Source: Bacilli bacterium (GTDB lineage Bacteria; Bacillota_I; Bacilli_A; RF39; UBA660). From it: a DNA stretch of 43,577 nt. Positions 18,488 to 43,522 of this stretch are shown in pieces (the first letter of the stretch is position 1; each line of letters opens with the position of its first letter). Location: NCBI GenBank assembly GCA_017432665.1, contig JAFRIS010000008.1, positions 1 through 43,577 of the forward strand. The letters are read 5' to 3'. The translations under genes and the position numbers were made by a program. The notes beneath the pieces were generated by a model. The model was not told where the DNA came from. It ran no database searches and saw only the letters and a program-made list of their open reading frames with translations.

Positions 18488-19837
18488 TTAATTATTTGTT
18501 TTTTGCAAAGTTTTATTCATTTCACTTATAGCATTAGATAATTCTTCTGCTTTAGCTGTATTCCCCTTTGCATATTCTTGTTGCATTTGTTGCATCATTT
18601 GCTCAAGATCTTGAGCATTACTTACTGATTCCGCCGGTTGTTCTACTACAGGTATAACAGGTTGTTCTTGAGGTGCAGTCTTTTCTTTTGACACCTCATT
18701 TTGTGTTACATTTTGAACATCAAATGATGCGCGAGATTTTTCAGCTTGTGCTGTATTAACAATAATTCCTCTATCTTCAGTAACACCTTTCTTTTCATAA
18801 ACAGTTTGATTATCTACATTGTTTTCTACATCAGTTGCTACTACTGTTGGTGTTTCAACTACTGGCTCTGCAGCGGGTTGTTCTACCGCTGGTGCTTTAG
18901 CTACCGGTTCTGCAGCAGGTTTTTCCGCTGTTGGAACTTCTACCACTGGCTCGGCAACGGGTTGTTCTACCGCTGGTGCTTTAGCTACCGGTTCTGCAGC
19001 TGGTTGTTCTACTGTTGGAACTTCTACTACTGGTTCTGCAGCTGGTTGTTCTACCGCTGGTGCTTCAGCTACCGGTTCTGCAGCAGGTTGTTCCACTGTT
19101 GGTACTTCTACCACTGGCTCGGCAACGGGTTGTTCTACCGCTGGTGTTTCAGCTACCGGTTCTGCAGCTGGTTGTTCTGCTGCTGGTGCTTCAGCTACCG
19201 GTTCTGCAGCAGGTTGTTCCACTGTTGGTACTTCTACTACTGGTTCTGCAGCTGGTTGTTCTACCGCTGGTGCTTCAACTACCGGTTCTGCAGCAGGTTG
19301 TTCCACTGTTGGTACTTCTACTACTGATTCTGCAGGAGATTCTTCAGCTTCTTTTTCTTCTTCATTTTCTGCAGTTGGTTCTATTTCAGTAACAACTTCT
19401 TCCATTGGAAGTTGTATTACCGGTTCTTCTACTTTCTCTTTTTCTCGTTCATCTTCTTCCTGAACTTCCTTTTCAAAATCTACTTCATCTTCTTTTATTT
19501 CATTCTCCTCAGGCACTTTTTCCTGCATAGACATTTCTTGTGTGTTCTCAAGTTCTTCTTGATTTTCCATATCAGTAGAGTGTTCATTAAGTAAACTACT
19601 CTTATAATCAGTAATTCTCAACTCTTGAAATTGATAAGACTTTTCTAATTCTGTGCTTAATACCTTTAAGTTTTCTAGCCCAAGCATTAAATTTTCTATT
19701 CTTTGTTCTGCTTCTGCCACTTTATTAGAATCTTCTTCACTTTCCACTTTATTCCTAATTTGATCAATTAAACTTTCTGTCTCTATAGTCATATCCCATA
19801 GAGAACTTTTTGCTTCTTTCAAAAAATCTTTATTCAT
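18488..19837 (-). CDS. Acidic Pro/Glu/Ala repeat protein of unknown function
   Basis: 449 residues. Residues 1-70 look like a short coiled coil (KSSLWDMTIETESLIDQIRN and following). Residues 95-165 are very Glu-rich. About 178-331 consists of eleven 14-residue repeats of the type VEQPAAEPVVEAPA. The tail, about 420-449, is a short helix (DLEQMMQQMQQEYAKGNTAK). No signal peptide, membrane helix or sortase signal is visible, so the protein looks cytoplasmic and extended. It lies 14 bases downstream of a DUF1292-like gene, mirroring the pair at 1126-2943. The ribosome site is AAGGTGG. Function unknown; scaffolding is a guess. Confidence 0.8.
   Translation of the reverse strand: MNKDFLKEAKSSLWDMTIETESLIDQIRNKVESEEDSNKVAEAEQRIENLMLGLENLKVLSTELEKSYQFQELRITDYKSSLLNEHSTDMENQEELENTQEMSMQEKVPEENEIKEDEVDFEKEVQEEDEREKEKVEEPVIQLPMEEVVTEIEPTAENEEEKEAEESPAESVVEVPTVEQPAAEPVVEAPAVEQPAAEPVVEVPTVEQPAAEPVAEAPAAEQPAAEPVAETPAVEQPVAEPVVEVPTVEQPAAEPVAEAPAVEQPAAEPVVEVPTVEQPAAEPVAKAPAVEQPVAEPVVEVPTAEKPAAEPVAKAPAVEQPAAEPVVETPTVVATDVENNVDNQTVYEKKGVTEDRGIIVNTAQAEKSRASFDVQNVTQNEVSKEKTAPQEQPVIPVVEQPAESVSNAQDLEQMMQQMQQEYAKGNTAKAEELSNAISEMNKTLQKTNN
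18845..19306. repeat. Eleven tandem 42-bp units coding a 14-residue Pro/Glu repeat
   Basis: In-frame units of exactly 42 bases encode VEQPAAEPVVEAPA variants. Units tend to alternate between APA and VPT endings, giving an 84-bp higher-order period. Base composition is visibly richer in G and C than the flanks. Long spurious open frames on the opposite strand come from this repeat. Confidence 0.9.
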
Positions 19838-32361: not shown

Positions 32362-32390
32362 AAAAAAAGAAGAAAGTCTTTTCCTCTTTT
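32362..32390 (-). terminator. Terminator after the ComEC-like gene
   Basis: Minus-strand hairpin of 8-11 bp containing one G-U pair (AAAAGAGGAAA / TTTCTTCTTTT) with a 4-base loop, followed by a T-run. It overlaps the stop codon. Confidence 0.65.
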
Positions 32391-33621
32391 ATCTAGTAAA
32401 ATTAATTGTTCCATTTGTATCAATAGTCATAACTACTGTTCCTTCAGCAGTGTAGTATGCAGGAACAGTTTTACCAGCACCCCTTCTAATTCTACTTAAA
32501 GCGACATTAGATGGTTTTCTAGTATTTGTTATTACTGCATAATCAGCTTTTAAATAGTTAACAGCGTCTTGATTATTATTAAATGATACATATCCATGAT
32601 GTGCAACTTTATAAACATCAATATCCCCAACTTGTCTATCAGTTATACTTTCTCTTTTTTGACCAAAATAATTTCCTATGTCTCCAGAAAAATACACCCT
32701 TCTTCCATTATAAGTTGCTACTGCACAAATACTATTAGCGTTTTCAAATCTTGTATGGTTAGCTGAACTAAGTCCGCCCATAGTTAAAAATTGTGTATTA
32801 TACAAATTAAAATGAATATTTCCTAGGTTAAAGCTTTGGCATTGAGGATTCGCAACATCACAAACATAAGTTCCTTTACTTTGAGCTTTTCTAATCATAC
32901 TGCGATAAGTTCCATTATGATTAGCTCCATCAGTTTTAGTAAAAAATTGCTTTACTCTAAAATTATCCATTACTTTATTATATCCACCAGTATGATCACC
33001 ATGAGCATGGGTAATTAAAACAAAATCCAATTCACTTACCCCTAATATTTTTAACTGCTTAACAACATAACTTGCTTTACCCCAAATACCTGTATCTATA
33101 AGACCAAATTTTCCTTCATCTTGAACTAATATAGCATCTGATGAAGCACCAACATTTAAGAAATAAACTGCATTTCCAGTAGAAGGAGCAGTAACAATGT
33201 CAGATCCTCCACTTTGCTTTGGAGCACTATCTTCATATCCGTTTGGATCAGGATTAATTGGCTGCATGTTTTTATTATCATCTATTTCAATATAACTCGA
33301 TCCTTGAAAAATATTCTCTTCAAGAGAACTCAATTCCTCTTCTTCTAAACAATTTCCTATTTTTGATTCTGCTGAAGTTATATTAAAAACAAACTTAGCC
33401 AATGTAGGAATCATAAAAACTATTATGAATGCTATAAAAGCATTTTGAATTCTTTTAAGACCTTTCTTATCATCAGGATTTCTCATCATCTTAATAAAAA
33501 GAAAAGTGACTGATATTAGTAATAGTATAGGAGCTGCTAATTGAATTATAGTCATAATTCTTTTAAATACTACTAAAAAGGCTATTGAAGCTCCATCATT
33601 ACATGCATAATTCATATTCAT
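32389..33621 (-). CDS. Two-helix membrane module fused to a ComEC-like metallo-beta-lactamase
   Basis: 410 residues (a start two codons later, at 33615, has better spacing from AGGGTGG). Residues 12-75 hold two long helices around a short basic turn: IMTIIQLAAPILLLISVTFL, then MMRNPDDKKG, then AFIAFIIVFMIPTLAKFVFN. This resembles VirB2/TrbC pilin-like proteins. A disordered Pro/Ser linker (about 100-145) leads to a metallo-beta-lactamase domain with THAHGDHTGG, FSGDIG and AHHG, the pattern of the ComEC/Rec2 C-terminal domain. The hydrolase should lie outside the cell and may cut DNA or other phosphodiesters (inference). It follows the DnaQ-like gene by 24 bases. Confidence 0.82.
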   Translation of the reverse strand: MNMNYACNDGASIAFLVVFKRIMTIIQLAAPILLLISVTFLFIKMMRNPDDKKGLKRIQNAFIAFIIVFMIPTLAKFVFNITSAESKIGNCLEEEELSSLEENIFQGSSYIEIDDNKNMQPINPDPNGYEDSAPKQSGGSDIVTAPSTGNAVYFLNVGASSDAILVQDEGKFGLIDTGIWGKASYVVKQLKILGVSELDFVLITHAHGDHTGGYNKVMDNFRVKQFFTKTDGANHNGTYRSMIRKAQSKGTYVCDVANPQCQSFNLGNIHFNLYNTQFLTMGGLSSANHTRFENANSICAVATYNGRRVYFSGDIGNYFGQKRESITDRQVGDIDVYKVAHHGYVSFNNNQDAVNYLKADYAVITNTRKPSNVALSRIRRGAGKTVPAYYTAEGTVVMTIDTNGTINFTR

Positions 33622-33645: not shown

Positions 33646-34110
33646 TTATTTATTATTTCCCTCATAAATAATTGCTTCATATAAAAGATCAACTAAATGG
33701 TTACTTGGTTCCAACTTATATTTATCAATTATTTCAGAAAATATATCTGGTTTGTATTCTAAATTTAAATATGAATAAATCATTTCTTTAGAATTATCTA
33801 GTTCTTTTAAATAATCCAAAGTATAAGAATTTTCTAAGATAAGTAAAGGATAATCTTCTACCCAATGTTTGAATTTATTAATAATAAAATAAATACTGTT
33901 AGCATAAGTAAACATATCTTTATCATAACTAATTATTCTTTTAATATCATCATTTTCAATCAAATTATTATTTACACGGTAATCAAAACGATCTATAAGC
34001 TTAATTCCTTCTAGTTTTAAAGCACTAATTTGAGCAATAAAGCCCTTATCACTTCTACTATGTGTAGGTATTATTTCAACTATAATATATTTATCTTTTT
34101 GTAAGTCCAT
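33646..34110 (-). CDS. DnaQ-fold exonuclease-like protein without catalytic acids
   Basis: 154 residues. Its layout echoes a small DnaQ-type 3'-5' exonuclease: KYIIVEIIPTHSRSDKGFIA matches the first strand, where DxE is expected, but reads E-I-I. AQISALKLEGIKLIDRFDYR fits the next two strands. LLILENSYTLDYLKEL stands where the HNxxFD motif belongs, and EPSNHLVDLLYEAIIYEG resembles the final HxAxxD helix, retaining H and D. Most metal ligands are missing, so activity is unlikely. The family call is tentative. It has a TGC-TATAAT promoter and precedes the ComEC-like gene by 24 bases, suggesting one transcript. Confidence 0.6.
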   Translation of the reverse strand: MDLQKDKYIIVEIIPTHSRSDKGFIAQISALKLEGIKLIDRFDYRVNNNLIENDDIKRIISYDKDMFTYANSIYFIINKFKHWVEDYPLLILENSYTLDYLKELDNSKEMIYSYLNLEYKPDIFSEIIDKYKLEPSNHLVDLLYEAIIYEGNNK

Positions 34111-34171: not shown

Positions 34172-34486
34172 TTACGCTTTAATTCTTTCAATTTCTTTAA
34201 CATTAGCTGCAGATGTTTGTTGCATTTCTTCAGCACCTTTAGTTGCTCTTTCTTTAAAAGCATCTATTGTATTCTTTAACTCTTTGATATCAACATATAT
34301 TTCGTCTAATATTGGTTGTACTGCATCTGCGGCATCTCCACGCCAATCCATATTTACAGTAGTAGTTCTGTAAGTTTCCATACTTGTTACTGCTGCATTT
34401 ACATTACTCTGCAATCTATCAATTTCAGTACGCATACTTAAATATACTTGTTTAATTTCAGCATCATTACCACTAGGCTTAGGCAC
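34172..34486 (-). CDS. WXG100 (ESAT-6-like) protein
   Basis: About 104 residues from GTG 34486, preferred because AAGGTGG lies 8 bases upstream; a GTG at 34498 falls inside that site. Two long helices are separated by a turn with VNMDWRGDAADAVQ, which carries the W-x-G of the family (WRG). The C-terminal helix is Lys/Glu-rich. WXG100 proteins are small secreted helical hairpins handled by type VII secretion; no EssC, EsaA or YukD gene is in this window. It overlaps the previous WXG100 gene by 8 bases, so the two products are made together and may pair. Confidence 0.85.
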   Translation of the reverse strand: MPKPSGNDAEIKQVYLSMRTEIDRLQSNVNAAVTSMETYRTTTVNMDWRGDAADAVQPILDEIYVDIKELKNTIDAFKERATKGAEEMQQTSAANVKEIERIKA

Positions 34487-34802
34487 GGTAATCACCACCT
34501 TCTAATTGTTTTGCAGCCAATTCATTTTCTTTATCAGTATCTTGATAATTAGTAGCCACTTGACCTGTTCTAGGACCCAATTCCTCTAATTGACTTATGT
34601 GAAGGTCTAAACGTGCTTTTAAATTACTAAATGAATTTATATACGCCTTTGATGATTGACCTTGCCATACTGCACTTGAAGTAATTGTTTCCATAGAATT
34701 ATTAACATCATTAAAAATTCTACGAACCTCTGTAGCAATATCAGCATACTTGGTAGCAGTGCTATGTAAGCTTCGTGGATCAACCTCTAAAAAACTACTC
34801 AT
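34479..34802 (-). CDS. WXG100 (ESAT-6-like) protein
   Basis: 107 residues from ATG 34802 (MSSFLEVDPR), 9 bases after GAGGAG. Two helices flank the turn SSAVWQGQSSKAYINSF with W-Q-G at mid-length, the signature position. The tail ENELAAKQLEGGDYRA shows no clear YxxxD/E secretion signal at the expected place, though NYQDTDKE is nearby. It is the first gene of a two-gene unit with its own promoter (34825-34853), downstream of the large glucan synthase gene. Confidence 0.87.
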   Translation of the reverse strand: MSSFLEVDPRSLHSTATKYADIATEVRRIFNDVNNSMETITSSAVWQGQSSKAYINSFSNLKARLDLHISQLEELGPRTGQVATNYQDTDKENELAAKQLEGGDYRA

Positions 34803-34824
34803 TAAAATCATCTCCTCTATATTA

Positions 34825-34853
34825 ATTTTAATATATTCAGAATGGTTATTCAA
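34825..34853 (-). promoter_or_regulatory. Promoter of the downstream WXG100 pair
   Basis: Minus strand: -35 TTGAAT (34848-34853), 17-base spacer, TAAAAT (34825-34830). The -35 touches the left arm of the inverted repeat at 34852-34894. Confidence 0.6.
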
Positions 34854-34894
34854 GTAACTTTACACTTATGAAAAACCAGAGTGTAAAGTTACTT
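34852..34894. repeat. 15-bp perfect inverted repeat between ndvB-like and WXG100 genes
   Basis: Arms AAGTAACTTTACACT (34852-34866) and AGTGTAAAGTTACTT (34880-34894), with a 13-base spacer. The right arm contains the stop codon of the large gene. On the minus strand no T-run follows the hairpin, although the loop itself contains TTTTT, so it is not a standard intrinsic terminator. Confidence 0.8.
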
Positions 34895-37800
34895 AGTTAC
34901 ATAAACCATAATTTGATGTTCTTTACCATCATCAATCAAGCTAATTGTTGAATGAACTTTTTTACCATCTAATTCAATCAATTCTTTACTGCTTTTTTTA
35001 ACTTCAATATTATAATCTGTATTTTGATAACGATATACAGCTTTGAAGCCATCCCAAGCAATTGGTATTTTTGGTTCTAATTTTAATTTATCACCATATT
35101 TTTTGATACCCAATATCTCTTCAATACCAACTTTATAGAACCATCCAGCTGAACCAGTATACCATGTCCAACCTCCCCTTCCTGGGAAGTTTTCAGATGA
35201 ATAAATATCTGCGGCAATTACATATGGTTCTACCTTATATTTTTCAACATATTGAGCATTTTTAGTTCGATTAACTGGATTAATCATTTGATAATAACGA
35301 TATGCACGATCATGATATCCAGCTTTAATTAAAGCCATTAAATACCAAGCAACCGAATGTGTATATTGACCACCATTTTCACGAATACCTTTAGGATAAC
35401 TCATAATATACCCCGGGTTATTAAGTGATTTTGCAAAAGGCGGAGTCAATAACTTAATAATTTTATTCTTATTATCAACTAATTGTTCTTCAACTGAAGT
35501 AATTGATTTTTGAACTCTATCCTTAGGAGCTACTCCACTAATAATAGCAAAACTTTGTGATATTAAGTCAATCTTACACTCATTATTTTCATGACTACCT
35601 AGTTTATCACCATTATCAAAGAAAGCTCTTAGATAATAATTACCATCCCAAGTCTTTTTATTAAGATCTTCTTTCAAGTCATTATTAAATGAAATATATT
35701 CTGTAACATCAAATTTAGAATCATATTTTTTCATCATATCAACAAACATATCAATAATATTATATAAGAAGAATCCTAACCAAACACTTTCTCCTTTACC
35801 TTTAATACCGACAAGATTCATACCATCGTTCCAATCTCCACCACCCATTAAAGGTATTTTATGTTTACCAAGCGATGTCATAGATAATTCTAATGATTTT
35901 AAACAGTGTTCTAACAATGTTTCTTTATGATCTGAATAACTAAATACTATGCCTTTTTCATTTTCATAATCGCTTAGTTTTTCACCTAATACATATGGTA
36001 CTTTTTCTTTCAAAATATCATAATCATTAGTTGTCTTAACATAATTAATTGTTGCGTATACTAACCATAAGAAATCATCTTTATATCTACTTCTTAATCC
36101 AAAATGATTAATCTCATGCCACCAATGAAGAACATCTCCTTCTTCAAATTGATGAGCAGCATTAATTAAGATTTGTCTTCTTGTATATTTAGGATTTACT
36201 AAAACAATATTCATAGAATCTTGTAACTGGTCACGATAACCAAAAGCTCCACTTACCTGATAGAATCCTGCTTTTGCTAAAATTCTTGCGGAAATAGTTT
36301 GATATAAATACCAACCATTTACCATGTAATCAAAACTTTCATCCGGTGTTTTTACTTGAACAGTACTCAATGTTTTATGCCATTCATCTTTTACTTGTTT
36401 TAATTCCTTCTTACAATTAGAAATATTAGTAAATGTCTTAATTAAATTCAAATTTTCTTTATCACTTTGACTACATCCCATAGCAAAGACAAGCGTTCTT
36501 TCTTCATCAGCTTCTAAGTTAGCTTCAACAACAATACTTTTAATTAACATTTTATTACATTCAGCAAACTTAATTTTCTCTGATGAAGTCATAAAGACAT
36601 TTACATCTCCATAATTAATACTATATACATTACGCATTTTCAAATAATTGTCTAATCCCATAAATTCAGTAAGTATATGGCGAGAAGTTTTCTCTTCAAA
36701 ATTACCAAAAGTTGGATTAATCCAGAATTCAATATCTACTTTGCTAGCTTTCTTTTTCTTATTAGTTAACTTCATTAAGTAAATCTTAACAGTTTCCTTA
36801 TTAGCTACAAATTCTGTTACTTCATGTTTAAACTCTTCTGTTTCACTTTCTAAAATACTATATCCAAATCCATGAGTACATTTTTCAGGATCAAATCTTT
36901 TTCCATTGAATTTAAATCCTTCACTCTGGTCATTAATTACCATTTCATTAGTCCATGAAGATATTTTAAATTCTCCAGAGTTATAAGCATAAGTATATCC
37001 ACAACCATTGTTAGTAACTATAGTACCAAAATTCTCATTTGCAATTATATTGGACCATGGCATAGGAGTATTCTTATTATAAATAACATATTCTTTACCA
37101 TTATTTTTAAATCCACCAAAACCATTATCCAAAGTTAATCTTTCTTTTTTATCAATTGGTATATTTTCTTCTATTTCTGTTGGTTGATACTCAGTAATAG
37201 TATTCTTTTCTTGTAGTTCTTCTACTGCTTCTTTTAAACTAATGTGATCACTTACTACAAATCTTAATCTAGGAACAATATCTAATAAACTTTGATCTTC
37301 TTTAGTAATATCTTCAGCATTAATAACAGTAATACTACCAGGTGTATGATAGAAACTATTTAAAGTATACATACGGTATTTTTCATCTTTGACAGTCTTT
37401 TCAATAACCTCTGCATATTGCCCTCTTTCTTTATTAATAATTATTACATCAACAAAGATAGATTTATTTTTAAAATACTCAAATGCTTTTAAAATATCAT
37501 AGACAAAACTCATACCACTAATATCCGTAATTTCAGCAGTAATAATTGGTCTATCTCCACTGACACCATATTTCCATAAACCTGTTTGTCCAAGAGCATT
37601 CTTTCTTAAGTAATTCATTCTTTCTTCAGAAACTGATATTCGAGTTGTCTGATACAAATAATTTAGCATGATATTAAATGTTCTCATCATTTCTCCATTT
37701 AAATTCATGTTCTTAGTATTAATGGTATTCATTAAACTAGAAACTAAGAAAGCTCTTTCTAATTCATAAGAATTATTATAACTATCTATAATATCAGCAA

Positions 37801-40800
37801 TTTGTTCCCTGCTTCTACCAAATCCTACAAGCATATAGACAATTGTTGAACCATTAGCTGGGACTGATACTTGATTTCTTAATGATAAAACAGGATCTAA
37901 GTTATCACCAGCATGATTAGATAATTCTTTATTTAAAGCATCAGCGTTATTAATTACATTACCTCTACCAATAAAGTTTAATCTTTCTGTTTCATAAGAA
38001 TATTTATCTAATGGGTTATCTATTATTAATCTAGTTACCATATAACTACTTAGATTAGATTCTCCTCTAGCTTTTCTTCTAGCAGTTAAACTGTTAGTGT
38101 CAGGATTAAAATCAGTCTTAATAAACATATTATTAAATACTTTATGACTGACATCATTCATATTCTCAGAAAGAATTGGTTCTGTATAACTTGTTAATTC
38201 TAATTTAACATCTTGATCACTTTCATTTTTAAAAGTAATTTTTCTTATTTCAGCATGATGATTTTTACAAACAGTTATTTCAGTCTTAGTAGTAATATCT
38301 TTATCTTTACGCATAAATTTAATTTTATCAGAAGCAAATACCACCTCATACTTTTCTGGTTTAACATTCATAGGAGCATAAGTATTACTCCAAATATAAT
38401 TAGTATTTAAGTTTTTAATGAATAAGAATATACCATAATCTTGCTCAGTAACTTTACGATACCTATTTAATTGTAAAGTTCTATATCTAGAGAAACTATC
38501 TCCTCTATCATTCATAATTAATGAATATTTTTTATTAGATAATACTGACATTTCTGGTAAATAAGAAATATAATCAAAAGCACGAATATCATTTTCAACT
38601 ATCTCTTTCTTATAGTTATACTTCTTATATCTAGCCATTTTCATATCAATGCTTGTCTTTACTTGAACTTTTTCTTTTAATAAAATTTCAAAGGTTCTAA
38701 TATTAACATTTGAATGAAAATATCTCTTAATAGCTCCTGATTTTAAATAGTTAGTTATTCCTAATAAACTCATACCTTGATGGTGAGCAAAATAAGATTT
38801 AACTACTCCTCTATTATCATAATCATAGGCTTCATATAATCCATAATTATCATACATTTCTAAGTCTTTAAACTTATTAATATTTTCATAAACATCTTCT
38901 GGGAACATCTCCATGGCCATTAACGATGAATATGGTGATAGAACCAATCTATTCTCTTTATCTTCTTTTGCTTTTAATTGTGGAGTTGCAAAAGCTTTAT
39001 ACTTATAATTTAAAGAATTGTCTAGTTCATTATAAGCTGATTCTGAAATACCCCAAGGTAGTTTATGAGATACTCTATTAACATAATCCTTTTGACAGAA
39101 ATGAGCAAAGTTATATGATTCATCCATTAAAGTATTATGATAATTCTTCATAAATAATAATGGCATATAATACTCAAATGCTGTTCCTGACCAAGAAATA
39201 AGCCCCTTATGTCCTTTATAAGTAGTTAATGACTTATCTAATGAGAACCAATGCTTATTAGGAGCATCTCCTAAGCAAATAGCTAAATAACTAGTTAAAC
39301 GTGATTCACTAGCAAACTTATTATAATTGTAAATTGATAGTTTACCTTCAAATTCATCATAACCAATACTAAAGACATTTTTCTTTGTATAAAGTTTTTT
39401 GAAATTAGCACCTTTAATTAACTTATCACAAACCTTAACTAACCTATCTTCTTTCTTAGTTTCTAAGAATTCTCTAGCTACAATTATATTAGCAATTAAG
39501 TTCCCAGAATCCACTGTAGAAACAAAGTTTGGTATTAATACTTTTTTAGTCCTAATATCATACCAGTTATATAAATGACCATGCCATTTATCAAGAGACT
39601 CAATTGAAGTTAATATTTTTCCTAGTAAATCAATAGCTTTATCTTCATCAATAAACTCTAATTCATAAGCACAAACAATACTACTTAATGAGAAACCTAT
39701 AGCAGTTGGAGAAGTTCTCATATCAAGTTTTTCTTCTCTGTTTTCTTGGTAATTATCTGGAATTAAATAATTATATTCTTCACATAAATTATCTTCAAAA
39801 TATTTCCAAGTCCTTAAAGCTAAGTCTTTAATTTCTTCAATTTTTCTTTCTTTTAAATCTACTGAATGATAATCAATAGTCCTACTAACTGTATATAAAA
39901 CAAATGGTCCTGTTAAAAATACTGCCGCTAATAAGAATGCTAAAGGATTATTAGTTATAATACCAATTACAATAAAAGCAATACTTGTAATAATATTAAA
40001 ACTGAAATTACGAATATAATTCTTTAGACTACCATCTACAGTCTTTTCTACTTCTTCAGCAGTAATCCAATTTAATAGATTCTTATGACTATATAATAAT
40101 CTATACATAGTTCTAAAGAATGCATCCATGTATAATTTACTGTAATATGGAATAGTTACAAAAACGATATAAGATCTTAATATAATACTTTTTCCACCAA
40201 AATATAAATTTTTATAATAGACATCTTTTTTACCTTTTTCTCTTTTAGCCATCTTACTCTTTAAGAAGAATAAGATTGAAACTGCTATTTCTAAGATAAC
40301 AAAACATATCCAGAATACAGACATTTCAAAACTACCTGTAAAAGCTAAAAATAATGTCAATAATAACATTGGATGTAAGAACATTCTAACAATGTTATCT
40401 AGTATTTTATATCTACCTAATAAATTAACTGGATTCTTTACTTTACGACCATTTTTGTTTTTAACTTTATTACCTAGCCAACCAATAATTTGAGCATCTC
40501 CACGAGCCCAACGATGTTGTCTAGTAATATCAACTAAGAATTTAGATGGGAAATCATCAATTAATTCAATATCAGATACATATCCACATCTCAAATAATT
40601 ACCTTCTAATAAGTCATGAGATAAAATCAAATTATCTGGGAAAGTATTATCTAATATTTTGTTAAATACTTCTAGGTCATAAATACCCTTTCCAACGAAA
40701 CTACCTTCTCCGAAACAGTCTTGGTAAACATTTGGAGTAACGGCAGTATAAGTATCAAATCCACCTATACCTGCAAAAACTTGACTGTATAGACTTCTAT

Positions 40801-42517
40801 TAGTAGCTTCAATATCAACGCTAACACGAGGTTGCATAATACCATAACCACTAACTACTTTTTTACCATTTTTTCCAATAACTGGTCTATTTAATGGGTG
40901 AGCCATAGCTCCCACTAAATTAAGTGCTGAGTTAAGAACTAATTTAGTATCAGTATCTAATGTAATTACATATTTAATACCCAATCTATTACCATGAAGA
41001 GTATTTACGTTGAAATATTTCTTTTCGTCAATATCTTCTCCCAATAATATTTTGTTAAATTGTAATAAAGCTCCTCTTTTTCTTTCATATCCCAAATATT
41101 GATCTTCTTTAGGATTCCAAAGACGTTTACGATAAATAAAATAGAAAATATCTTTTTTATACTTTTCATTTAATTTAGCAGCATATTCTTTACCATAATT
41201 AGCTACTTCTTCATCCCATGGCATAATTTCTTCACTAGCTGCTTTTACATCCCCTAATAATGTAAAATACAAATTGTCTGATTTATTAATCAAATAGAAT
41301 AATTCTAAAGTATCAAACATTTCTTTAACTTTATTTGTATTCGCAACTATAGTAGGAATAACTACCATAGTTTTTGATTCTTTAGGAATTCCTTTAGAAT
41401 AATCCAATTTAGGTAGTACTCTAGTCTTAGAAGTAGTAAGTAATATTTCATTCATAATTTGACTAAATATCTGACTAATAGGAATAAATAAAACTATAAA
41501 TCCTAAAATACGATATGGAATAAACCATTTAGTTAAATATACAGTAAATATAACTGTTAAGACTACTAATGTTAAAAGATAAACTACTACTCTAGCAGTA
41601 TTTTTATTTTGCTTAAATAATTCAAAACCAATATGTTTTTTCTTATCAAAAATCTTCTCTAGATAAGTATATTCATGCATTCTTTTTTTCTTCGCAAGTT
41701 CTACTAATCTTCTACGATATAAAGCTTTAGATTCAATTGTCATTTCTTTATATACAGAATCTGTCAATAATAATCTTTCAGCTGCAGATACTTTTTCATA
41801 TAATTTCTCTAGTGAATATTCATTCATATCTTTTAAGTCACTAAAGATATTAGATATTAAAATATTATTATCAATCTTACTTTGATATTCATCATTTATT
41901 AATTCTTTAATACTAACATTATTCTTTTGTAAGTATTCATTTAACTCTTTAAACAATTCATTACTACTAGGTCCTATTCTATGTAATTGATTATTAACTT
42001 CAAAAATATAATTAGTATTATTAGGAATTTCAAAATTATCAGGGATAAATGTTTTTAAAGTAAAATGTTCATTATTTTTAACAATGTTTCCTACGGCTTC
42101 TTTATTAATCAATTTACGACATTCATCACGACATAAACTATTTAATCTATCAGTGTACACTAAAACAATAGTCGTAAAAATATATGACAATTCTTTATAT
42201 GTAAATAGTTTATTGTTTTCTTCTTCATACTTCTTTAACTCTTCAACTAAATATTTAAAACTAATATTGTAATTTCTCTTACTGACAATATTTTTAATTA
42301 TTGAATAATTATCTCTAATTATCTTAGCATTTCTTTCTATTTCTTTCTTATTATCTAAAATACTATTTTTATGTTCAACCAATAAATAGTAGTTATCAAT
42401 TAACCACTCGTTAGTTATCTCTACATATTCATGATCTTTGGTCTTTTTAACTAAAAAATTATAGTATTCAGTTATGTCATTAAAGTCGTTAAAAAATTTT
42501 CTGATTAAATTAGCCAT
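34889..42517 (-). CDS. NdvB-like cyclic beta-glucan synthase/phosphorylase (GT84-GH94)
   Basis: 2542 residues. Order: an N-terminal helical region (1-300); two membrane helices (about 308-355); a GT2-like processive glycosyltransferase domain with TLDTDTKL (near 520), DLLEGNYLRCGY and QHRWARGDAQIIGW (from about 667); more membrane helices (about 715-755, 838-880); a glycoamylase-like domain (about 930-1250, ending YFAHHQGMSLLGITNYL); then beta-sandwich and GH94 phosphorylase regions (about 1260-2500) with GGGDWNDGMNLVG around 2228 and GGWTWYTGSAGWFY. This is the layout of NdvB/ChvB, which make and size cyclic beta-1,2-glucans. The product here could be cyclic or linear. Ribosome site GGGAG; extended -10 TGA-TATAAT at 42539-42547. 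Confidence 0.9.
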   Translation of the reverse strand: MANLIRKFFNDFNDITEYYNFLVKKTKDHEYVEITNEWLIDNYYLLVEHKNSILDNKKEIERNAKIIRDNYSIIKNIVSKRNYNISFKYLVEELKKYEEENNKLFTYKELSYIFTTIVLVYTDRLNSLCRDECRKLINKEAVGNIVKNNEHFTLKTFIPDNFEIPNNTNYIFEVNNQLHRIGPSSNELFKELNEYLQKNNVSIKELINDEYQSKIDNNILISNIFSDLKDMNEYSLEKLYEKVSAAERLLLTDSVYKEMTIESKALYRRRLVELAKKKRMHEYTYLEKIFDKKKHIGFELFKQNKNTARVVVYLLTLVVLTVIFTVYLTKWFIPYRILGFIVLFIPISQIFSQIMNEILLTTSKTRVLPKLDYSKGIPKESKTMVVIPTIVANTNKVKEMFDTLELFYLINKSDNLYFTLLGDVKAASEEIMPWDEEVANYGKEYAAKLNEKYKKDIFYFIYRKRLWNPKEDQYLGYERKRGALLQFNKILLGEDIDEKKYFNVNTLHGNRLGIKYVITLDTDTKLVLNSALNLVGAMAHPLNRPVIGKNGKKVVSGYGIMQPRVSVDIEATNRSLYSQVFAGIGGFDTYTAVTPNVYQDCFGEGSFVGKGIYDLEVFNKILDNTFPDNLILSHDLLEGNYLRCGYVSDIELIDDFPSKFLVDITRQHRWARGDAQIIGWLGNKVKNKNGRKVKNPVNLLGRYKILDNIVRMFLHPMLLLTLFLAFTGSFEMSVFWICFVILEIAVSILFFLKSKMAKREKGKKDVYYKNLYFGGKSIILRSYIVFVTIPYYSKLYMDAFFRTMYRLLYSHKNLLNWITAEEVEKTVDGSLKNYIRNFSFNIITSIAFIVIGIITNNPLAFLLAAVFLTGPFVLYTVSRTIDYHSVDLKERKIEEIKDLALRTWKYFEDNLCEEYNYLIPDNYQENREEKLDMRTSPTAIGFSLSSIVCAYELEFIDEDKAIDLLGKILTSIESLDKWHGHLYNWYDIRTKKVLIPNFVSTVDSGNLIANIIVAREFLETKKEDRLVKVCDKLIKGANFKKLYTKKNVFSIGYDEFEGKLSIYNYNKFASESRLTSYLAICLGDAPNKHWFSLDKSLTTYKGHKGLISWSGTAFEYYMPLLFMKNYHNTLMDESYNFAHFCQKDYVNRVSHKLPWGISESAYNELDNSLNYKYKAFATPQLKAKEDKENRLVLSPYSSLMAMEMFPEDVYENINKFKDLEMYDNYGLYEAYDYDNRGVVKSYFAHHQGMSLLGITNYLKSGAIKRYFHSNVNIRTFEILLKEKVQVKTSIDMKMARYKKYNYKKEIVENDIRAFDYISYLPEMSVLSNKKYSLIMNDRGDSFSRYRTLQLNRYRKVTEQDYGIFLFIKNLNTNYIWSNTYAPMNVKPEKYEVVFASDKIKFMRKDKDITTKTEITVCKNHHAEIRKITFKNESDQDVKLELTSYTEPILSENMNDVSHKVFNNMFIKTDFNPDTNSLTARRKARGESNLSSYMVTRLIIDNPLDKYSYETERLNFIGRGNVINNADALNKELSNHAGDNLDPVLSLRNQVSVPANGSTIVYMLVGFGRSREQIADIIDSYNNSYELERAFLVSSLMNTINTKNMNLNGEMMRTFNIMLNYLYQTTRISVSEERMNYLRKNALGQTGLWKYGVSGDRPIITAEITDISGMSFVYDILKAFEYFKNKSIFVDVIIINKERGQYAEVIEKTVKDEKYRMYTLNSFYHTPGSITVINAEDITKEDQSLLDIVPRLRFVVSDHISLKEAVEELQEKNTITEYQPTEIEENIPIDKKERLTLDNGFGGFKNNGKEYVIYNKNTPMPWSNIIANENFGTIVTNNGCGYTYAYNSGEFKISSWTNEMVINDQSEGFKFNGKRFDPEKCTHGFGYSILESETEEFKHEVTEFVANKETVKIYLMKLTNKKKKASKVDIEFWINPTFGNFEEKTSRHILTEFMGLDNYLKMRNVYSINYGDVNVFMTSSEKIKFAECNKMLIKSIVVEANLEADEERTLVFAMGCSQSDKENLNLIKTFTNISNCKKELKQVKDEWHKTLSTVQVKTPDESFDYMVNGWYLYQTISARILAKAGFYQVSGAFGYRDQLQDSMNIVLVNPKYTRRQILINAAHQFEEGDVLHWWHEINHFGLRSRYKDDFLWLVYATINYVKTTNDYDILKEKVPYVLGEKLSDYENEKGIVFSYSDHKETLLEHCLKSLELSMTSLGKHKIPLMGGGDWNDGMNLVGIKGKGESVWLGFFLYNIIDMFVDMMKKYDSKFDVTEYISFNNDLKEDLNKKTWDGNYYLRAFFDNGDKLGSHENNECKIDLISQSFAIISGVAPKDRVQKSITSVEEQLVDNKNKIIKLLTPPFAKSLNNPGYIMSYPKGIRENGGQYTHSVAWYLMALIKAGYHDRAYRYYQMINPVNRTKNAQYVEKYKVEPYVIAADIYSSENFPGRGGWTWYTGSAGWFYKVGIEEILGIKKYGDKLKLEPKIPIAWDGFKAVYRYQNTDYNIEVKKSSKELIELDGKKVHSTISLIDDGKEHQIMVYVTK

Positions 42518-42538
42518 ATAACTACACTCCCTATTGAA

Positions 42539-42566
42539 ATTATATCATAAAAGTTATTGAATAACT
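42539..42566 (-). promoter_or_regulatory. Extended -10 promoter of the ndvB-like gene with a palindrome
   Basis: Minus strand TGA-TATAAT (hexamer 42539-42544). A palindrome AGTTATT-G-AATAACT (42552-42566) covers the upstream spacer and -35 area, where no good -35 is found. This is a possible operator. Confidence 0.5.
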
Positions 42567-42584
42567 ATAACAAAATACACAAAC

Positions 42585-42609
42585 AAAAAAACTCGTAATT
42601 TACGAGTTT
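42585..42609 (-). terminator. Terminator of tRNA-Ser
   Basis: Minus-strand 9-bp hairpin AAACTCGTA / TACGAGTTT with a 3-base loop, followed by a T-run. Confidence 0.85.
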
Positions 42610-42620
42610 ACTTTTAAAAA

Positions 42621-42711
42621 TGGCGGAGTAGGAGAGATTTGAACTCTCGCGCCAGTTGCCCGGCCTATACCCTTAGCAGGGGCACCTCTTCAGCCTCTTG
42701 AGTACTACTCC
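42621..42711 (-). tRNA. tRNA-Ser (anticodon GCT)
   Basis: 91-base cloverleaf on the minus strand with acceptor stem GGAGTAG/CTACTCC, anticodon loop CTGCTAA (GCT), a long variable arm typical of serine tRNAs, and an encoded CCA. It has its own promoter and terminator, between a WXG100-like pair and the ndvB-like gene. Confidence 0.95.
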
Positions 42712-42735
42712 ATTCCTCACTGCATCCGCACATAT

Positions 42736-42764
42736 ATTATCGCATATCGGCCTTATTTTGTCAA
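42736..42764 (-). promoter_or_regulatory. Promoter of tRNA-Ser
   Basis: Minus strand: -35 TTGACA (42759-42764), 17-base spacer, GATAAT (42736-42741), about 25 bases before the mature tRNA. Confidence 0.8.
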
Positions 42765-42767
42765 TGA

Positions 42768-43055
42768 TTAATGGACTTCTTCAGTCTGAGCCATCTTGTC
42801 GACAGCCGTTTGAATATTAGCAAGTTGATTATTAATAATAACCTTATAATCTTTAATATTTGAAGCTAGTTCATCCCAAGAATTTCTAAATGCAACAGCA
42901 GCATTTCCAGTCCAAGCACGACCTTCTACCCCTACTGCATCTACTATTTCATTATTGATAGTATCTAAACTACTTTCAGCAACTTCGATTGCTCTTTTTA
43001 TTTCATTAGTTAAAGTCTTTATTCCTTCAAAATCTATTTCATTACTATGTGTCAT
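42768..43055 (-). CDS. WXG100 (ESAT-6-like) protein
   Basis: 95 residues. A helical hairpin with the turn EGRAWTGNAAVAFRNSWDEL containing W-T-G at mid-length, as in WXG100 proteins. The first helix (GIKTLTNEIKRAIEVAESSL) and second helix (NIKDYKVIINNQLANIQTAV) are amphipathic. The C-terminus KMAQTEEVH lacks an obvious YxxxD/E motif. It follows a similar-sized helical protein by 11 bases and presumably pairs with it. Ribosome site AGGGGATG. The only gene between it and the ndvB-like gene is tRNA-Ser. Confidence 0.87.
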   Translation of the reverse strand: MTHSNEIDFEGIKTLTNEIKRAIEVAESSLDTINNEIVDAVGVEGRAWTGNAAVAFRNSWDELASNIKDYKVIINNQLANIQTAVDKMAQTEEVH

Positions 43056-43066
43056 ATATTCATCCC

Positions 43067-43360
43067 CTATTCAAAATTAGTTCTAGCAGAATCAGCTGCT
43101 TCATTTAACTCCATTATTTTTTGATTAATCATATCACAAAAAACTTTCATTTGTTCTTTAGCATCAATTAATGTTTGTCTTTTGTCATTATATTTATCCA
43201 TTATATCTTCATATAGTTTTATTTCATTACTCTTTAATACAGTTTCTAATTCTTTCATACAATTATCTAATGTTTCAATTGCTTCTGAATAATTCTTTGT
43301 TTGTTCATTAGCTACTTCTAAAGTATTTTGCATTTCTTGTAAGGAAAAGTTTAAAGCCAT
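43067..43360 (-). CDS. WXG100-like helical-hairpin partner protein without WXG
   Basis: 97 residues, all-helical, acidic, the size of ESAT-6 proteins. The first helix is about residues 5-45 (SLQEMQNTLEVANEQTKNYS) and the second about 50-95 (IMDKYNDKRQTLIDAKEQMK). The W-x-G turn is missing; the midpoint reads NEIKLYEDIMDKY. In many ESX pairs only one partner keeps WXG, so it is read as the partner of the 42768 protein (inference). It heads a two-gene unit with an excellent promoter and an AAGGAGTGAT ribosome site. Confidence 0.7.
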   Translation of the reverse strand: MALNFSLQEMQNTLEVANEQTKNYSEAIETLDNCMKELETVLKSNEIKLYEDIMDKYNDKRQTLIDAKEQMKVFCDMINQKIMELNEAADSARTNFE

Positions 43361-43383: not shown

Positions 43384-43412
43384 ATTGTAATAATAACTAC
43401 TATATATGTCAA
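43384..43412 (-). promoter_or_regulatory. Promoter of the upstream WXG100-like pair
   Basis: Minus strand: -35 TTGACA (43407-43412), 17-base spacer, TACAAT (43384-43389). The -35 is 1 base beyond the T-run of the tRNA terminator. Confidence 0.8.
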
Positions 43413-43414
43413 AC

Positions 43415-43434
43415 AAAAAAACACCCTAAGGTGT
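43415..43434 (-). terminator. Terminator of the tRNA Asn-Glu cluster
   Basis: Minus-strand hairpin ACACC / GGTGT with a 4-base loop, followed by a T-run. Confidence 0.75.
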
Positions 43435-43445
43435 CTATATTCATA

Positions 43446-43522
43446 TGGTGACGAGTACGGAATTCGAATCCGTGAATGCTGCCGTGAAAGGGCAGTGTGT
43501 TAAGCCACTTCACCAACTCGCC
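43446..43522 (-). tRNA. tRNA-Glu (anticodon TTC)
   Basis: Cloverleaf on the minus strand with acceptor GGCGAGT pairing to ACTCGTC (one G-U pair), anticodon loop CTTTCAC (TTC), T-arm GATTCGAATT and encoded CCA. Confidence 0.93.

What the first reader, a model, noticed from the sequence alone, without database searches (positions are those of the whole stretch)
34172..43360. NdvB-like giant gene bracketed by two pairs of WXG100-like genes
Four small helical-hairpin proteins, three with a clear W-x-G turn, flank the 7.6-kb glucan synthase gene on both sides, and each pair has its own promoter. No type VII secretion ATPase or membrane gene is present here. A glucan synthase/phosphorylase in such a setting is not a standard arrangement. 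It could mean the hairpins are exported by a system encoded elsewhere and act at the glucan-bearing surface, or that the cluster is coincidental.
Basis: partly seen in the sequence, partly recalled or inferred. Interest (0 to 1): 0.55.

Follow-up and report, generated by a model that had tools for sequence, protein, structure and literature searches.

The report
Secretion-partner gene pairs beside glucan gene
Two pairs of small helical proteins that look like partners of a type VII secretion system sit on both sides of a large sugar-polymer gene in a probable gut bacterium, most likely because the gaps around that gene take up insertions easily, not because the genes work together.

Summary
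The genes are real. Three of four hairpins carry WxG; two pass Pfam's WXG100 cut-off; 43067 has lost the tryptophan. The giant gene is a full cyclic beta-glucan synthase. A type VII ATPase (EssC, 988 bits) is encoded on another contig, and 37 of 39 genus genomes have one over cut-off.

The link to ndvB does not hold. ndvB is in 39 of 39 genus genomes. The tRNA gap holds the pair in 18 of 29 assessable genomes, is empty in 10, and holds another WXG-like gene in one. Downstream WXG genes occur in 6 of 33. None of 20 ndvB loci fetched from other genera shows the pair; 11 of the 12 with both tRNAs in line have an empty gap. There, relatives of the pair often head type VII cassettes. In three genus genomes with an empty gap the pair sits elsewhere, and the pair tree splits the gap's occupants into two lineages.

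Best reading: effector-less type VII partner pairs in insertion-prone gaps beside a housekeeping ndvB. Known kind; modest interest.

The parts
43446..43522 (-). tRNA-Glu(ttc), upstream edge of the insertion gap
   Evidence: ARAGORN; order Lys-Ile-Asn-Glu-Ser-ndvB in relatives
43419..43436 (-). terminator-like hairpin after tRNA-Glu; a similar hairpin is seen at this place in empty sites
   Evidence: consensus match; conservation by eye
43384..43412 (-). promoter-like site TTGACA-17-TACAAT for the upstream pair
   Evidence: 11 of 12 matches; consensus match only
43067..43360 (-). first gene of upstream pair (97 aa, family A2): WXG100-like hairpin that has lost the W
   Evidence: no PF06013 match; profile to an EsxA chain E 0.0019, second to a designed coiled coil at 0.00013
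42768..43055 (-). second gene of upstream pair (95 aa, family A1), WTG motif, WXG100
   Evidence: PF06013 E 3.5e-7 over cut-off; profile to an ESAT-6-like chain E 0.0011 and to EsxB chains from E 0.0025
42736..42764 (-). promoter-like site TTGACA-17-GATAAT for tRNA-Ser
   Evidence: a similar site is seen in empty sites of relatives (by eye)
42621..42711 (-). tRNA-Ser(gct), separates the pair from ndvB
   Evidence: ARAGORN
42589..42609 (-). terminator-like hairpin between tRNA-Ser and ndvB
34889..42517 (-). ndvB-like cyclic beta-glucan synthase (2542 aa)
   Evidence: Pfam GH94, supersandwich, PF10091; PDB 8rf9/8rf0 and 8wy1; matched in 39 of 39 genus genomes
34479..34802 (-). first gene of downstream pair (family A3), WQG motif and YxxxD near the C-terminus, EsxA-like
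   Evidence: PF06013 E 1.8e-11 and TIGR03930 over cut-off; profile to EsxA structures E 1.7e-9; motif
34172..34486 (-). second gene of downstream pair (family A4), WRG motif, WXG100-like below cut-off
   Evidence: PF06013 E 4.4e-4; hairpin model, mean pLDDT 79
33646..34110 (-). conserved 154-aa gene that directly follows ndvB in most relatives without downstream WXG genes

Best explanation
The four small genes are two separate, effector-less pairs of type VII secretion substrate/partner proteins (WXG100, Lap or Esx type), lodged in two gaps next to a housekeeping cyclic glucan synthase gene. The upstream pair stands between the terminator-like hairpin of tRNA-Glu and the promoter-like site of tRNA-Ser, in a gap that is empty in nearly all assessable genomes of other genera, so it was most likely inserted there. 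The downstream pair corresponds to the last two genes of a larger WXG/peptidase cassette found at the same place in some relatives. The pairs presumably form hairpin heterodimers that are exported by, or guide partners to, the EssC machine encoded on another contig. Shown: genes, gaps, EssC, family relationships, occurrence of the pair at several places, and purifying selection on the upstream pair. Inferred: insertion rather than loss, heterodimers, export, and that the partner effector is encoded elsewhere or no longer needed. No working link with glucan synthesis is indicated.
For: EssC over the TIGR03928 cut-off in this genome and in 37 of 39 genus genomes. Relatives of the pair in other genera: of 20 loci fetched, EssC and/or a DUF4176-like gene lies somewhere in the fetched stretch in 16 (8 with EssC, 13 with DUF4176-like; one of them PF13780 at E 3.3e-28). 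The tRNA gap: pair in 18 of 29 assessable genus genomes, empty in 10, another WXG-like gene in 1; of 20 ndvB loci fetched from other genera 12 have both tRNAs in line, 11 of them empty and 1 with unrelated DNA. In G012, G020 and G011, whose gap is empty, the pair sits elsewhere. A tree of 23 pairs splits the gap occupants into two lineages at 100/99 support, the window's lineage grouping with those three elsewhere copies. G274 has the pair after the same tRNA-Glu, followed by 171- and 468-aa ORFs, while ndvB is on another contig. dN/dS of the upstream pair 0.11-0.34. Larger cassettes with a peptidase-type protein in the downstream slot of L076, L070 and L110.
Against: Within this genus the upstream pair is common in the gap (18 of 29), and pair distances follow ndvB distances (Mantel rho 0.527, 0 of 2000 permutations), so it is largely inherited with the neighbourhood and a late functional tie cannot be ruled out. 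No effector stands beside either window pair. Of five large cassette genes of relatives scanned with Pfam (L140, L144, L151, L180, L188) only one, in L188, matched a toxin domain, so 'effector-like' rests on size and place for the others. 43067 lacks a WXG100 match; its membership rests on its orthologues, its fold and its partner. A recognised EssB (one match below cut-off) and a Pfam match for EsaB were not found; the genome is 71% complete. Only 2 of the 20 other-genus pair loci entered the pair tree, and 10 of 39 genus genomes were not assessable at the gap.
Confidence: 0.78

Rival explanations
1. The hairpins and the glucan synthase form one functional surface unit: exported hairpins act on or with the surface glucan.
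For: WXG-type genes on both sides in 5 genus genomes (G000, G019, G008, G026, G030); neighbouring genes include a Ddl-like ligase (named by eye) and, in several relatives, thioester-domain surface proteins (PDB 6fwv E 7.9e-13).
Against: ndvB with an empty tRNA gap in 10 of 29 assessable genus genomes, and no pair at any of 20 ndvB loci fetched from other genera, 16 of which hold enough upstream DNA to tell; pair away from ndvB in G012, G020, G011 and on another contig than ndvB in several other-genus genomes; tRNA-Ser and a terminator-like hairpin lie between.
Confidence: 0.06
2. The upstream pair is a decaying leftover of a lost effector cassette with no present function.
For: The pair stands with larger ORFs in G274 and G012, and the window has no effector beside it; 43067 lost the W.
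Against: Open frames with dN/dS 0.11-0.34 among four species, a strong promoter-like site, and 18 genus genomes that keep the two genes side by side.
Confidence: 0.1
3. The small proteins are unrelated coiled-coil hairpins, not type VII proteins.
For: 43067 has no WXG100 match, and its model matches many generic hairpins as well as EsxA (3zbh Z 10.8 at rank 36 of a tied list).
Against: 42768 and 34479 pass curated cut-offs; 43067-type genes stand beside 42768-type genes in the 21 genus cases seen, several orthologues keep a W at the turn, and in L148, L150, L151 and L154 a related pair directly follows EssC and an EsaB-like gene.
Confidence: 0.04

Closest known systems
Lap1/Lap2 partner pairs of LXG effectors, T7SSb (PMC9600955, passages read)
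   Same: Two adjacent small helix-turn-helix genes; in relatives they stand with larger genes and a DUF4176 gene, and that paper reports a DUF4176 gene in the telD operon
   Different: No effector and no DUF4176 gene beside either window pair; the Pfam list for the four proteins shows no DUF3130 or DUF3958; order relative to the large gene varies (in G012 the pair comes last)
EsxA/EsxB WXG100 proteins
   Same: Profiles A1 and A3 match EsxB and EsxA chains; A3 keeps WxG in 6 of 6 rows and a Yxxx[DE] motif in 5 of 6
   Different: Not beside EssC in this genus, whose main EssC locus carries EsaB-like, about 70-aa and 72-aa genes in the members viewed
T7SS subtypes c-j (PMC11217815; abstract, part 1 of the Results, and the sections on T7SSf, h/i, j and candidate substrates read)
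   Same: EssC with an EsaB-like gene and no recognised EssB; WXG100 genes scattered beside candidate substrates, as reported there for T7SSi
   Different: Kinase, phosphatase and other subtype genes were not searched for, so no subtype is assigned
[quoted passage not shown] cyclisation domain 8wy1)
   Same: Domains and length over the whole protein
   Different: From a Bacilli genome; catalytic residues and product not tested

Membership tests
WXG100 (PF06013) | Whole-protein score over the curated cut-off, for 42768-43055 and 34479-34853 | tested here: met
   30.9 and 44.6 bits against 27.3; both carry W-x-G
WXG100 (PF06013) | Same, for 34172-34498 and 43067-43360 | tested here: not met
   20.9 bits, and no match listed; called WXG100-like only
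Type VII secretion system, Bacillota type | EssC ATPase (TIGR03928) | tested here: met
   988 bits against 778.4 on contig C13
Type VII secretion system, Bacillota type | EssB/YukC (PF10140) | tested here: not met
   one match of 18 bits, cut-off 27.4; genome 71% complete
Type VII secretion system, Bacillota type | EsaB/YukD ubiquitin-like protein | tested here: inconclusive
   PF08817 no match in the genome and no Pfam family for the 85-aa gene that follows EssC; that gene is conserved in place in the genus members viewed
Lap1/Lap2-type effector partner pair | Encoded next to an LXG-type effector | tested here: not met
   none beside either pair in the window; related pairs in relatives stand with large ORFs
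Lap1/Lap2-type effector partner pair | Physical binding to an effector and need for its export | not testable with these tools
   needs experiment
NdvB-type cyclic beta-glucan synthase | Sequence match over the synthase, PF10091 and GH94 parts of known synthases in one protein | tested here: met
   (8rf9 and 8rf0 at reported E 0, three stretches each; 8wy1 E 1.7e-92)
NdvB-type cyclic beta-glucan synthase | Catalytic residues and cyclic glucan product | not tested
   residues not compared; product needs experiment

The most novel reading that the evidence does not exclude
Solo WXG pairs act in trans as shared export adaptors of a type VII system that, in this lineage, delivers cell-wall hydrolases: the same genome carries a WXG100-CHAP protein, a CHAP protein, and glucosaminidase and phage-tail-lysozyme proteins with weaker WXG100 matches at their N-termini. 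The ndvB locus, with its tRNA gap, thioester-adhesin slot and peptidase-cassette slot, would be an island for swapping surface genes.
Probability: 0.18. Interest if true: 0.55.

Novelty: new member of a known kind. Interest (0 to 1): 0.28.

Why it matters
It shows how a striking gene bracket can arise from two separate insertion gaps, and it places EssC in 38 of 39 genomes of one genus of small-genome Bacilli. If solo pairs serve effectors in trans, counting type VII substrates by neighbourhood would miss such partnerships.

Tried and rejected
Rejected: absence of a type VII system (EssC found). Rejected: ndvB itself carrying an export domain; the Pfam matches listed are glucan-enzyme domains. 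Rejected: pair at the main EssC locus; in the genus members viewed that locus has EsaB-like, about 70- and 72-aa genes. Not discriminating: VIA-align of the 43067 model gave EsxA (3zbh, Z 10.8, rmsd 1.6, 90 aligned) tied with many unrelated hairpins. hhalign of A1 against A2 gave 17% probability and A1 against A3 85%, so the two genes of the upstream pair are not shown to be homologous to each other. The weak YukC match on C27 was not followed up. Paper searches: 'WXG100' with 'cyclic glucan' gave 0 papers; 'type VII secretion' with 'RF39' gave 1, not read; the tRNA-gene/island search gave 60, 12 listed, none opened. In one search the ndvB interval of L072 was set wrongly by a 57-aa chance match; one search corrected it. 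In one search two of 20 loci (L141, L146) showed no pair because overlapping ORFs hid it; one search found it. G025's ndvB stretch was not fetched, and 10 of 39 genus genomes were not assessable at the tRNA gap. Four of the 20 other-genus ndvB contigs (L198, L199, L200, L203) end too close upstream to tell.
Full report
What is there. On the minus strand, reading 5' to 3', the region holds: tRNA-Glu(ttc), a terminator-like hairpin, a promoter-like site, the upstream pair (97 and 95 aa), a promoter-like site, tRNA-Ser(gct), a terminator-like hairpin, the 2542-aa ndvB-like gene, the downstream pair (107 and 104 aa from their likelier starts), and a conserved 154-aa gene. Pfam puts WXG100 over its cut-off for 42768 and 34479, below it for 34172, and lists none for 43067. 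The 43067 family (18 rows, A2) keeps a tryptophan at the turn in several rows and has lost it in others, the window's clade included. Its AlphaFold2 model is a two-helix hairpin with mean pLDDT 90.1, but the fold match to EsxA is tied with unrelated hairpins.

The giant gene. ndvB matches cyclic glucan synthase structures 8rf9 and 8rf0 (reported at E 0) and the cyclisation domain 8wy1 at E 1.7e-92. That 8wy1 is the Thermoanaerobacter italicus domain of PMC10834661 (search listing and start of abstract seen) is my recall. The gene is matched in 39 of 39 genus genomes and in 63 of 291 family genomes drawn.

The secretion system. The window has no type VII ATPase (one search lists none on contig C36), but contig C13 has an EssC of 1522 aa, TIGR03928 988 bits against 778.4, followed by an 85-aa EsaB-like gene and two small genes. 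In the genus 38 of 39 genomes match at 1e-50 and 37 of 39 are over the cut-off; the one without a match is G003. The same genome carries other candidate substrates: WXG100 over cut-off plus CHAP, a CHAP protein, phage-tail lysozyme with a weak WXG100 match (E 0.028), and a glucosaminidase with a WXG100 match below cut-off (E 7.3e-4). A cluster on C31 has two small genes, 481- and 536-aa genes and a DUF4176 gene.

The upstream gap. Across the genus the order is tRNA-Lys (opposite strand), Ile, Asn, Glu, gap, Ser, ndvB, with local losses of single tRNAs. Of 39 genomes, 29 are assessable: 18 have the pair (two of them without tRNA-Glu beside it: G035, where the contig ends, and G014, with phage-like genes in front), 10 are empty, and G003 has a 445-aa gene with a weak WXG100 match. 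The 10 empty gaps measure 84-298 bases; the pair-filled gaps with both tRNAs measure 720-754 bases, apart from G015 with 1825. The empty sites keep what looks like the tRNA-Glu terminator and the tRNA-Ser promoter, and the pair stands between these two (by eye).

Other genera. Of 60 other-genus genomes with ndvB I fetched 20 loci. None shows the pair within 3.2 kb of ndvB in what is assembled; the only profile match is a 168-aa ORF at E 0.01 in L202. Four of the 20 contigs end too close upstream to tell (L198, L199, L200, L203); four have 2 kb or more upstream but no such array in line (L190, L204, L207, L209); twelve have both tRNAs in line. Of these twelve, 11 are empty (83-120 bases) and one, G305, has a 771-base stretch with a 79-aa ORF that matches no WXG profile. 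So the gap was most likely empty before this genus arose.

The pair occurs at several places. Strong A1 matches (E below 1e-18) occur in 21 of 39 genus genomes: 18 in the gap and 3 elsewhere, in G012, G020 and G011, whose gap is empty. In G012 the copy stands beside 439- and 446-aa ORFs; the 446-aa one has no Pfam match. In the other two no such ORF stands beside it, although both contigs are short there. The tree of 23 concatenated pairs (21 of the genus and 2 of the other-genus pairs) has a 100/99 split: the window clade, G014, G015 and the three elsewhere copies on one side; the other 12 gap pairs and the two other-genus pairs on the other. Within the gap, pair and ndvB distances are correlated (18 pairs, rho 0.527, 0 of 2000 permutations), so inheritance with the neighbourhood is common. 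One of the other-genus pairs, G274, lies right after the same tRNA-Glu and is followed by 171- and 468-aa ORFs without Pfam matches; its ndvB is on another contig, beside a tRNA-Ser(gct) on the opposite strand.

What the pair belongs to. In 291 family genomes A1 matches 54. In 20 stretches fetched around the best matches, EssC lies in 8, an EsaB-like gene in 8, a DUF4176-like gene in 13 (one of them the query itself), and EssC or DUF4176-like in 16 (a 108-aa chance EssC hit in L152 is not counted). In L148, L150, L151 and L154 the order is EssC, EsaB-like, a first hairpin gene, A1, a 115-222-aa gene, then a 357-872-aa gene, with the DUF4176-like part as a separate gene in three and inside the 357-aa ORF in L148. 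The first gene in L148 matched A3 weakly and not A2. [quoted passage not shown] PMC11217815 (abstract and several Results sections read) reports one or two small WXG100-related genes next to nearly all candidate substrates of new subtypes.

The downstream gap. Of 33 genus loci where a downstream gene is assembled, 6 have WXG-profile genes within 4 kb (G000, G019, G008, G026, G030, G022). In G022 (L076) and in the named relative L110 the slot holds six genes, and in G030 (L070) five up to near the contig end, with WXG-like proteins and a C39 or NlpC/ELLD peptidase-type protein. The window's pair corresponds to the last two genes in L076 (first one BLAST E 5.6e-18; second by place and alignment) and, by place, in L110. 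The downstream pair diverges fast (dN/dS 0.29-1.06) against 0.11-0.34 for the upstream pair and 0.10-0.12 for ndvB (four species). Five genomes have WXG-type genes on both sides: G000, G019, G008, G026, G030.

Mechanism and confidence. Most likely the two genes of each pair form a hairpin dimer that is exported by, or guides a partner to, EssC. The 34479 family has WxG in 6 of 6 rows and a Yxxx[DE] motif in 5 of 6; the window's upstream pair has no such C-terminal motif. Purifying selection argues against decay of the upstream pair. Export, dimer formation and partner identity are inferred. A glucan role is not excluded by experiment, but nothing in the comparison calls for it.

Limits. The genome is 71% complete in 47 contigs; many genus contigs end near ndvB. 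EsaB-like, Ddl-like and similar names were given by eye or by similarity to genes of this genome. The genus was not named by a call; the five relatives are uncultured Bacilli, Bacillales or Erysipelotrichaceae MAGs, three of them titled from ruminant gut sites, and 'gut' for the window is inferred from them.

Noticed in passing
L070 11390-12586, L082 14269-16398, L085 1115-3076, L105 4415-5980, L072 4559-6019, L102 3809-5032, L075 13848-15470, L092 349-1830: A further slot, between tRNA-Ser and ndvB, holds thioester-domain surface proteins in these relatives (profile of the eight to PDB 6fwv at E 7.9e-13); absent in the window.
   Followed up: partly
L020 7304-11303 (G000 contig C19) and L022 1540-2370 (C13): WXG100 or weakly WXG-like N-termini with CHAP, phage-tail lysozyme and glucosaminidase domains: candidate type VII wall hydrolases in the same genome.
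   Followed up: partly
L188 2450-5419 (G011): 989-aa effector-like protein with a C-terminal ADP-ribosyltransferase match, on a stretch with EssC, EsaB-like and DUF4176-like genes.
   Followed up: no
L072 2-2661 (G014): Phage-like genes (reverse-transcriptase-like and lysozyme-like, named by eye) before the pair, upstream of tRNA-Ser.
   Followed up: no
window 32389-33621: Metallo-beta-lactamase-fold protein with an N-terminal stretch that weakly resembles a T4SS pilin domain.
   Followed up: no
window 18488-19837: ORF with a weak, below-cut-off Extensin match, in the GC-richest 2-kb bin of the window (0.366).
   Followed up: no
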